Below, piece by piece: positions 6,473 to 6,956 of a DNA stretch of 9,567 bases (positions are counted from its first letter, which is position 1; every line of letters begins with the position of its first letter). Under the pieces are notes generated by a model. It saw nothing but the letters and a program-made list of their open reading frames with translations, was not told where the DNA came from and searched no databases. The DNA comes from Omnitrophica bacterium GWA2_52_8 (GTDB lineage: Bacteria > Omnitrophota > Omnitrophia > Omnitrophales > Aquincolibacteriaceae), in contig MHFC01000002.1 in the NCBI GenBank assembly GCA_001804025.1, positions 4,141-13,707 of the forward strand. Reading direction: 5' to 3'. Made by a program: the position numbers and the translations under genes.

Positions 6473-6546
6473 GAGCCCGTAGCTCAGCCTGGCAGAGCAC
6501 ATCCCTTTTAAGGATGGTGTCGATGGTTCGAATCCATCCGGGCTCA
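6473..6546 (+). tRNA. tRNA-Lys (anticodon UUU)
   Basis: A complete 74-nt cloverleaf. The acceptor GAGCCCG/CGGGCTC is fully paired. The D arm is GCTC/GAGC and the anticodon stem CATCC/GGATG carries loop CTTTTAA, reading UUU. The T arm GATGG/CCATC has loop TTCGAAT, and the discriminator is A (6546). CCA is not encoded. No convincing promoter box stands directly upstream, so it may depend on transcription through the structured region before it. Its 3' end is the start of the repeated unit described at 6535. Confidence 0.97.
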
Positions 6547-6619
6547 CTTGATCTCATGATCAAGTACAGCGCCGTGACAGTTCAGGGAAAACTGTCTACG
6601 GCGGCCGCACTTTGTTCGC
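6535..6619. repeat. 85-bp direct repeat, copy 1 (begins inside tRNA-Lys)
   Basis: This stretch is base-for-base identical to 6681-6765, offset 146. Its first 12 bases are the 3' end of tRNA-Lys (CATCCGGGCTCA). The remaining 73 form two hairpins. The first is CTTGATC/GATCAAG (6547-6553 with 6558-6564, loop TCAT). The second is a 13-bp stem, CGCCGT-GACAGTT (6570-6582) with AACTGTC-T-ACGGCG (6590-6603, one bulged T), capped by a 7-nt loop. A G/C-rich linker to 6619 follows. No protein is encoded. Confidence 0.95.
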
Positions 6620-6687
6620 CGGATGATTCAGAGTGAAACTTCAAGTTTCACCTGAAAGTCCTTGCGCATAGGCGCAAGGGCATCCGG
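6619..6687 (+). other. Variable segment 1: predicted three-way junction
   Basis: This sequence between repeat copies folds completely. An outer stem pairs CCGGATG (6619-6625) with CATCCGG (6681-6687), the latter being the first bases of repeat copy 2. Hairpin a is TTCAG-A-GTGAAAC (6627-6639) with GTTTCAC-CTGAA (6645-6656). Hairpin b is CCTTGCGC (6660-6667) with GCGCAAGG (6672-6679), loop ATAG. Eight to twelve uninterrupted or nearly uninterrupted pairs per arm is far more than random spacer DNA shows. No family was recognised. Confidence 0.6.
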
Positions 6688-6765
6688 GCTCACTTGATCT
6701 CATGATCAAGTACAGCGCCGTGACAGTTCAGGGAAAACTGTCTACGGCGGCCGCACTTTGTTCGC
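6681..6765. repeat. 85-bp direct repeat, copy 2
   Basis: Identical to 6535-6619, including the 12-bp tRNA-Lys 3' end (6681-6692). The rest of a tRNA is absent: the sequence upstream (6620-6680) is the hairpin-rich variable segment and cannot supply D or anticodon arms. It is therefore a tRNA 3' fragment, not a second tRNA gene. Confidence 0.95.
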
Positions 6766-6852
6766 TGCTGCGATTTTTCTAATCGCGTACAGCGGGCGCC
6801 TTGCGGAGAGGAACCTCCGGTTTTGCCCGAAAAGCCGGTGCGCTCTAAGCAC
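6763..6852 (+). other. Variable segment 2: further run of hairpins
   Basis: After copy 2 the sequence diverges from segment 1 but is again full of dyads. CGCTG (6763-6767) pairs with CAGCG (6790-6794), enclosing GCGATT/AATCGC (6770-6775 with 6781-6786). CCGGTTTT (6817-6824) pairs with AAAA-G-CCGG (6830-6838), or alternatively CGGAG (6804-6808) pairs with CTCCG (6815-6819). GTGC (6838-6841) pairs with GCAC (6849-6852). The competing options mean the true fold is uncertain. Confidence 0.45.
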
Positions 6853-6857
6853 TGCGG

Positions 6858-6869
6858 CATCCGGGCTCA
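6858..6869. repeat. Third, 12-bp copy of the tRNA-Lys 3' end
   Basis: CATCCGGGCTCA occurs again here and stops matching exactly at the base equivalent to the tRNA discriminator A. The two bases before it (GG) also match copy 2. It closes the array like the distal attachment-site copy of an element inserted at a tRNA 3' end. Confidence 0.85.
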
Positions 6870-6883
6870 AATTTATTTTCTCC

Positions 6884-6956
6884 GGCGGAGTAGCTCAGTT
6901 GGTAGAGCAGAGGACTCATAAGCCTCGCGTCGGCGGTTCGATTCCGTCCTCCGCCA
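6884..6956 (+). tRNA. tRNA with CAU anticodon (probably elongator tRNA-Met; tRNA-Ile2 not excluded)
   Basis: A 73-nt cloverleaf. The acceptor is GGCGGAG/CTCCGCC, the D arm GCTC/GAGC and the anticodon loop CTCATAA, reading CAU. The T arm GGCGG/CCGTC has loop TTCGATT, and the discriminator is A. The anticodon stem GAGGA/GCCTC has an A31-G39 mismatch next to the loop. G1-C72 pairs normally, so it is not the initiator. Pairs 4-69 and 5-68 are G-C, unlike the C-G pairs that E. coli TilS prefers in tRNA-Ile2, which leans towards Met. CCA is not encoded. It ends 15 bp before tilS. Confidence 0.92.

What the first reader, a model, noticed from the sequence alone, without database searches (positions are those of the whole stretch)
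6535..6869. Tandem array seeded on the 3' end of tRNA-Lys: constant 85-bp repeat plus different hairpin-rich segments
Seen directly: the last 12 bases of tRNA-Lys (CATCCGGGCTCA) occur at 6535, 6681 and 6858. Copies 1 and 2 continue identically for 73 more bases, then diverge into segments of 61 and 92 bp. Copy 3 stops matching exactly at the tRNA 3' end. The layout is tRNA-end / constant / variable 1 / tRNA-end / constant / variable 2 / tRNA-end. Known: elements using tyrosine integrases insert at tRNA 3' ends, restore the tRNA and leave a direct repeat at the far side; repeated insertion gives tandem arrays. Inference: two very small (146 and 177 bp) non-autonomous elements sharing one end may have inserted in tandem. 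Alternatives are slippage duplication followed by divergence, or a functional repeated RNA with constant and variable parts. No integrase or other ORF lies inside, and the perfect 85-bp identity beside diverged flanks points to a recent event or strong constraint.
Basis: partly seen in the sequence, partly recalled or inferred. Interest (0 to 1): 0.8.

Follow-up and report, generated by a model that had tools for sequence, protein, structure and literature searches.

The report
Hairpin insertion units capping tRNA genes
Next to a lysine tRNA gene of an uncultured Omnitrophota bacterium sit two gene-free, hairpin-rich units of a family that also sits at the ends of many other tRNA and protein genes in the same order, likely tiny mobile elements that would copy the end of the gene they enter, making gene ends landing sites for DNA too small to carry any gene.

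Summary
Downstream of tRNA-Lys are two units (146 and 177 bp), each closed by a 12-nt copy of the tRNA 3' end; their first 85 bp are identical. Unit 1 is built from two two-hairpin modules, L and its inverted relative R; in unit 2 the R is decayed. Covariation supports both modules. Models find them in 33 and 30 of 47 genomes of this order and in 0 of 50 outside it, beside many tRNAs and at protein-gene 3' ends (nusG, nuoI, ahcY). 46 of 198 tRNAs, with 25 anticodons, carry a copy of their own tail downstream (control mean 2.1). nusG is occupied in 1 of 30 genomes read, empty in 29. R tends to be closed by a locus-specific stem between its 5' flank and the target copy. I read these as non-autonomous insertion modules that duplicate target on entry. 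The enzyme is unknown; RAYT and reverse transcriptase find little support, a tyrosine recombinase is untested. Closest precedent: the 178-bp repeats at E. coli tyrT, same layout, different modules. A processed functional RNA is the main rival.

The parts
6473..6547 (+). tRNA-Lys(TTT), host gene of the array; its last 12 nt (6535-6546) are the repeated tail
   Evidence: ARAGORN, Rfam tRNA 67.8 bits
6546..6612 (+). L module, copy 1: HP1 6546-6565 and HP2 6570-6603 with extrahelical T at 6597
   Evidence: model R1 81.6 bits; DNA fold
6619..6625 (+). inverted piece of the tRNA tail (CCGGATG), predicted 5' strand of the stem that closes R
   Evidence: DNA fold pairs it with 6681-6687; six of the pairs in the RNA fold
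6627..6680 (+). R module of unit 1: HP3 6627-6656 (extrahelical A 6632) and HP4 6659-6680
   Evidence: model R2 75.8 bits over 6627-6685; fold
6681..6692 (+). second copy of the tRNA tail; start of the 85-nt duplication 6681-6765
   Evidence: direct repeats
6692..6758 (+). L module, copy 2, identical to copy 1
   Evidence: model R1 81.6 bits; 85-nt repeat
6802..6862 (+). decayed R module of unit 2
   Evidence: weak match, model R2 28.9 bits, E 4.7e-5 over 38 sources
6858..6869 (+). third copy of the tRNA tail, followed by the 14-nt spacer to tRNA-Met
   Evidence: direct repeats; spacer
6884..6956 (+). tRNA-Met(CAT), downstream neighbour; directly follows tRNA-Lys in relatives G003 and G011

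Best explanation
The array is two gene-free, hairpin-built units stacked on the 3' end of tRNA-Lys, most likely non-autonomous insertion modules that would enter gene ends as folded single strands, are predicted to duplicate the target end on entry, and are likely moved by an enzyme encoded elsewhere. The building block is a ~60-nt two-hairpin module with an extrahelical base in the outer hairpin; it occurs in both orientations (L and R), alone, as L-R pairs, and in tandem. Shown by calls: module structure and covariation; presence beside many tRNAs and at protein-gene ends; flanking copies of the local gene end at a part of the copies; in most of these the copy starts at the end of HP4; an excess of complementarity between the 5' flank of R and the target copy; occupied against empty sites. 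Inferred: movement itself; the single-stranded intermediate (from the hairpins and the conserved bulge); the trans-acting enzyme; and the order of events in the window, an older tail-L-R unit (unit 2, R now decayed) and later entry of the unit-1 R with an 85-nt duplication that copied tail plus L, which would explain the perfect 85-bp identity. Slippage between tail copies probably adds and removes units later.
For: Covariation: L alignment 19 of 21 pairs with changes on both sides, R alignment 10 of 20, 0 of 500 shuffles reach either covariation score. Spread: 33 (L) and 30 (R) of 47 genomes of the order, 0 of 50 outside it. Tail copies: 46 of 198 tRNAs, 25 anticodons, control mean 2.1, maximum 9 of 500. 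Gene-end copies at nuoI, nusG, ahcY and others. Of 99 R copies tested, 25 pass the 99% point of 2000 mismatched pairs, and in 19 of these 25 the right copy starts 0-1 nt from the HP4 end (one of the 19, L286, is a neighbouring module rather than a target copy). Occupied/empty: nusG 1 of 30; window site empty in G003 and G011, one R plus tail in G009. Both orientations and tandem copies. 5' flank of R complementary to the target copy: mean longest match 4.64 against 3.49, sd 0.27, 0 of 2000.
Against: No excised form, junction or movement has been seen. No enzyme is identified. 74 of 99 R copies show no flanking duplication at the test's threshold; several that pass are module-to-module repeats (L279, L283, L286, L299) or a tRNA-body match (L041). 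For solo L modules the expected target copy is at best weak (4.70 against 4.40, permutation p 0.04). In four G017 protein loci 13 of 17 differences between the two gene-end copies fall on third codon positions (P 3.4e-4), which plain duplication followed by drift of the outer copy does not predict. The two L copies in the window are identical although the two R parts are not. No match in viral contigs, phages or plasmids (two exact patterns, one 171-nt query).
Confidence: 0.53

Rival explanations
1. The units are functional small RNAs co-transcribed with the tRNA and released by tRNA-processing enzymes; tail plus inverted tail would form a tRNA-like acceptor/T-stem end.
For: Strong RNA folding and covariation; tail copies with an inverted tail piece in between in 20 of 46 tRNAs (control mean 3.6, maximum 9 of 1000); the same layout at E. 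coli tyrV/tyrT, where an RNA, RttR, is annotated.
Against: Modules sit at only some tRNAs of a genome (own genome: beside 5 of 31) and vary in presence between close relatives; they also sit at protein-gene ends and inside other repeats. No transcript data here. Rfam holds no matching family.
Confidence: 0.2
2. The units are ends or deletion remnants of larger integrative elements that used tRNA and gene 3' ends as attachment sites for a tyrosine recombinase.
For: Insertion at tRNA 3' ends and gene 3' ends with a repeat at the far side is the habit of such elements (established knowledge); mostly third-position differences between the two gene-end copies look like an element-borne gene end; integrase genes or fragments lie 0.3-3 kb from a module in G018:C1, G016:C20, G002:C13, G021:C18 and G006:C13.
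Against: Phage_integrase is present in 25 of 25 genomes including 8 without modules, and several module-rich genomes (G042, G043, G037, G044) show only two matches each, which may be the host XerC/XerD pair (identity not tested). The compact size is uniform at many genes. I did not annotate the loci, so a long L-integrase-R element is not excluded.
Confidence: 0.15
3. The repeats arose in place by replication slippage or template switching at tRNA hairpins, without a mobile element.
For: Tandem arrays exist (tRNA-Lys in L022, tRNA-Ser in L132, nuoI in G004), and direct plus inverted copies are what template switching makes.
Against: The same module structure recurs at unrelated genes within one genome and across 33 of 47 genomes, with conserved loop and bulge positions, so a template must have spread.
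Confidence: 0.1

Closest known systems
E. coli tyrV/tyrT 178-bp repeats (RttR/rtT RNA; Rfam RtT)
   Same: Tandem units after a tRNA, each ending in a copy of the tRNA 3' end (19 nt at +178, +356, +534 in MG1655) and holding an inverted tail piece.
   Different: The L and R models do not match it and Rfam's RtT is not among the matches in the window or in 14 loci. One tRNA family in E. coli, many genes here. That the E. coli RNA is released during tRNA processing is recalled.
REP / REPIN / BIME elements moved by RAYT transposases
   Same: Short ORF-less palindromes, singlets, inverted pairs and clusters, mostly downstream of genes; no dedicated transposase is known for the CGTC class (PMC3733652, abstract, outline and passages; PMC3116915, passages).
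   Different: Two hairpins per ~60-nt module rather than one 20-40 bp palindrome; no GTAG before HP2 in 0 of 17 L sequences (the letters CGTC occur somewhere in 7 of 17, not tested as an end tag); copies of the target end; no module within about 1.5 kb of 30 Y1 transposase loci.
tRNA- and gene-3'-end integrative elements with tyrosine integrases
   Same: Target site, intact gene kept, repeat of the gene end at the far side.
   Different: No integrase or other gene inside; size 60-180 nt; structured hairpin pairs at the ends.
Integron attC sites and IS200/IS605 ends
   Same: Folded single-strand hairpins with extrahelical bases as substrates (titles and abstracts in the listing; IS200/IS605 details recalled, abstract of PMC6006769).
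   Different: No cassette; boxes, IntI and strand use not tested.

Membership tests
RtT RNA (Rfam; E. coli tyrT repeat) | match to the Rfam covariance model | tested here: not met
   RtT is not among the matches in the window at E up to 5 nor in 14 loci at gathering scores
RtT RNA (Rfam; E. coli tyrT repeat) | tandem units each ending in the tRNA tail, with an inverted tail piece inside | tested here: met
   window; E. coli; general test (20 of 46)
REP/REPIN | unpaired GTAG tag at one end of the palindrome | tested here: not met
   0 of 17 L sequences have GTAG in the 15 columns before HP2
REP/REPIN | unpaired CGTC tag at one end of the palindrome | tested here: inconclusive
   CGTC occurs in 7 of 17 L sequences; its place at the end of a palindrome was not scored
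REP/REPIN | repeats flank a RAYT (Y1) gene | tested here: not met
   no L or R match in 30 Y1 loci. Against this: one weak Y1 match outside those loci (G011:C58, 24.1 bits) lies about 450 nt from an R copy
Tyrosine-integrase integrative element | direct repeat of the gene 3' end on both sides | tested here: met
Tyrosine-integrase integrative element | integrase gene in the element or tracking it | tested here: inconclusive
   none inside the window's array; family present in 25 of 25 genomes, with and without modules; a few integrase genes lie near modules
Reverse-transcriptase-driven element | reverse transcriptase in the genome | tested here: not met
   RVT_1 in 4 of 25 genomes: 3 of 17 with modules, 1 of 8 without; draft genomes, so absence is not proof
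MITE of a DDE transposon | fixed-length target duplication | tested here: not met
   duplications of about 12 to 85 nt
Integron attC or casposon | attC boxes with IntI, or a solo Cas1 | not tested
   -

The most novel reading that the evidence does not exclude
The R module is a self-addressed insertion element: a ~60-nt folded strand whose 5' flank carries a short guide complementary to the gene end it enters, so that target choice is set by base pairing and the guide is rewritten from the new target at each insertion. It would be among the smallest guide-addressed mobile units, moved entirely in trans.
Probability: 0.13. Interest if true: 0.92.

Novelty: new variant of a known kind. Interest (0 to 1): 0.69.

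Why it matters
Gene 3' ends are the classic entry points for integrases with large cargo. Here the same ends carry units of 60-180 nt with no gene and a closing stem that tends to match each target. That makes it testable how a very small folded DNA could find gene ends, and it gives the E. coli tyrT repeat array a possible context: tRNA-tail arrays with inverted tail pieces recur at many tRNAs of a distant phylum.

Tried and rejected
RAYT/REP origin: no L or R in 30 Y1 loci, with the one near miss named in the membership test. Reverse transcription: RVT_1 in 4 of 25 genomes, not found in module-rich G000, G042, G043, G037. Integrase linkage: no discrimination at family level; 20 longer loci were searched for modules and tRNAs only and were not annotated for islands. 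Viral, phage and plasmid carriage: no match (narrow queries). Exact 40-mer of the constant part in genome contigs: none. Solo L as an insertion with its own target copy: weak. Rfam: in the window only tRNA reaches its cut-off; the mir-46 matches (19.9 and 21.7 bits) are far below theirs of 44.7. tilS neighbourhoods of named Omnitrophota records: one weak R match in 20 loci, no tRNA-Lys(TTT) in the 14 of them scanned for tRNAs. Stricter tail test (14 nt, at most 1 mismatch): 31 of 196 tRNAs against a mean of 1.7, maximum 7 of 200; it misses the window's own 12-nt copies. Literature: searches list no paper on these units in Omnitrophota that I could recognise from titles and abstract starts; the classical tyrT papers are not in the library and are recalled.

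Full report
Observation. The window lies at G000:C2:4141-13707. The closest TilS relatives (46-49% identity) are in Candidatus Omnitrophota records. tRNA-Lys(TTT) is at 6473-6547 and tRNA-Met at 6884-6956. An 85-nt repeat is identical at 6535-6619 and 6681-6765, and the 12-nt tRNA tail recurs a third time at 6858-6869. All coordinates of the finding hold. The stretch folds far better than shuffles (RNA z -11.5; unit 1 as DNA z -9.9).

Anatomy. Reading the same site and other tRNAs in relatives showed a common plan: tRNA tail, a hairpin that starts at the discriminator base (HP1), a second hairpin with a conserved extrahelical T (HP2), then often a further pair of hairpins (HP3, HP4) and a copy of the local tRNA's own tail. 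I call HP1+HP2 the L module and HP3+HP4 the R module. Covariation supports both: A1, 17 sequences, 19 of 21 pairs with changes on both sides, 89.0% of cells paired; A2, 10 sequences, 10 of 20 pairs, 99.0% paired; 0 of 500 shuffles reach either covariation score. The rows were chosen by me and the structures drawn from them, which favours them. Where the two models match the same site with more than about 25 bits, they do so on opposite strands, so L and R look like one kind of module in two orientations. In the window, unit 1 is L (81.6 bits) plus a well-kept R (75.8 bits); unit 2 is an identical L plus a weak R match (28.9 bits). In unit 1 an inverted tail piece, CCGGATG at 6619-6625, pairs with CATCCGG at 6681-6687 and closes a three-way junction around HP3 and HP4 (similar in the RNA fold).

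Spread. Among 97 genomes the L model (R1) hits 33 and the R model (R2) 30; all are among the 47 of the same order, none among the 50 others of the class and phylum (strict filters, so weak copies are missed, and the lists of matches are cut). The highest count is 54 R matches in G043. In the window's own genome 31 tRNAs were found, and modules sit beside tRNA-Lys(TTT), Lys(CTT), Gly(GCC), Gly(CCC) and Arg(CCG); one R copy (G000:C114) has no tRNA in the 3 kb read. Of the best L locus per genome shown, 23 of 30 have a tRNA within 300 nt and 14 abut its 3' end; of the best R loci, 17 of 30 have a tRNA within 300 nt (my count). Over the fetched whole-genome loci, 46 of 198 distinct tRNAs, with 25 different anticodons, have an 11-nt piece of their own tail within 400 nt downstream; dealing the downstream sequences out at random gives a mean of 2.1 and a maximum of 9 in 500 trials. 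The loci were chosen for module or tRNA matches, so this is not a genome-wide rate; two of the 46 (L015, L032) come from genomes without modules. In 20 of the 46 the stretch between tRNA and tail copy also holds an inverted 8-mer of the tail (mean 3.6, maximum 9 in 1000).

Copies away from tRNAs. Some R copies follow protein genes and are followed by a second copy of the gene's last codons: in G017 nuoI (57 nt), ahcY (KPDHYRY*), nusG (QVEKI*), a GGDEF protein and an aldehyde dehydrogenase-like gene (names from my reading of the translations; flanks). A flank test on 99 R copies found 25 at or above the 99% point of 2000 mismatched pairs; in 19 of these 25 the right copy starts 0-1 nt from the HP4 end. 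Four of the 25 are module-to-module repeats and one a tRNA-body match; the other 74 show no such copy, and many of them lie inside other palindromic repeats. Copies also lie at tRNA 5' ends (L310, L324, L331, L335; tRNA identity of L324, L331 and L335 by eye). Around 53 R copies that I chose, the 30 nt before the module are complementary to the sequence after HP4 beyond reshuffled pairs (mean longest match 4.64 against 3.49, sd 0.27, 0 of 2000; at 6 nt or more, 15 against a mean of 5.4 and a maximum of 13); a few of these matches come from host repeats or neighbouring hairpins rather than from a target copy.

Empty and occupied sites. At nusG 30 loci were read: only G017 has R and a second gene end; in 29 neither is seen in the 150 nt after the stop, and most run straight into rplK. 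At nuoI, G017 and its congener G004 carry units, G004 as a tandem array at a contig end; 10 others show none in 170 nt. At the window's own site G003 and G011 have tRNA-Lys and tRNA-Met with 10 and 58 bp between and no unit, while G009 has a single R with a tail copy at the same place. Hence 6547-6869 is extra material relative to these relatives.

Mechanism. The position rule (copy starts at the HP4 end) applied to the window says that the unit-1 R duplicated 85 nt, from CATCCGGG to TTCGC, on entry beside an existing tail-L-R unit. That would account for perfect identity of tail plus L next to differing R parts. Variable duplication length speaks against a DDE transposase; few reverse transcriptases (4 of 25 genomes) against target-primed reverse transcription; no module in 30 Y1 loci against RAYT, although one weak Y1 match in G011 lies about 450 nt from an R copy. 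Hairpins with an extrahelical base suggest recognition of a folded single strand; this step is inference from recalled properties of attC and IS200/IS605 ends. A result against the simple form: in four G017 protein loci 13 of 17 differences between the copies are at third codon positions (P 3.4e-4). Either the nearer copy came with the element, or the gene was later replaced by a related allele, or the copies take turns as the functional end through slippage. The first of these is what a tyrosine-integrase element would do, so that rival stays open; integrase genes lie near a module in five genomes and were not followed up.

Known systems. The nearest precedent is the E. coli tyrV/tyrT array: in MG1655 the 19-nt tRNA-Tyr tail recurs at +178, +356 and +534, each unit with an inverted tail piece. 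The layout is the same; the L and R models do not match and Rfam's RtT is not among the matches here. That the E. coli RNA is released during tRNA processing is recalled; one search shows only the annotation RttR. REP/REPIN elements share the behaviour but not the GTAG tag, the size or a RAYT linkage. Eight literature searches listed nothing recognisable on these units.

Verdict. The feature is real and not an assembly artefact of this MAG, since the same plan is read in other MAGs. It belongs to a family of gene-free two-hairpin modules of one Omnitrophota order, for which I found no description, that sit at gene ends, often with copies of those ends.

Noticed in passing
L117, L125, L126, L129, L015, L026: A second unit type after tRNAs: an inverted copy of the tRNA T-arm, a GGGAGC...GGGTGGCCGACC-like core with hairpins, then the direct tail copy; closer to the E. 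coli tyrT units in plan than L/R are. No model was built.
   Followed up: partly
L116, L125, L126, L127, L109: Head-to-tail arrays of two to three L modules after tRNAs, joined by sequence like the tail end (GCAC or GCCA).
   Followed up: partly
L310, L324, L331, L335, L120: R modules at the 5' ends of tRNAs (His, Pro, Gln and another), with copies of the leader and first tRNA bases.
   Followed up: no
L273, L275, L313, L064, L067, L075: R modules nested inside other dispersed palindromic repeats (GTCATTCCCGC/GGGGATGAC and GAAGCAATCTC types), as if those were landing sites.
   Followed up: no
L081 and L405 (G004, nuoI): Tandem [nuoI end + R] units at contig ends, with identical gene-end copies, while the congener G017 has one unit with mostly synonymous differences.
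   Followed up: partly
L033, L035: A third conserved hairpin type after tRNA-Lys units (ACACGAG...CGAG(T/C)G stem followed by an ACTTTT..AAAAGT hairpin), seen by eye.
   Followed up: no
L032 (G050, outside the order): tRNA-Lys followed by an inverted and a direct copy of its tail within about 60 nt, without L or R modules, so the tail-copy habit reaches beyond the order.
   Followed up: no
L353 (G018), L356 (G021), L357 (G006), L354 (G016), L355 (G002): Phage_integrase genes or fragments within about 0.3-3 kb of an L or R module; a possible lead to the enzyme.
   Followed up: no
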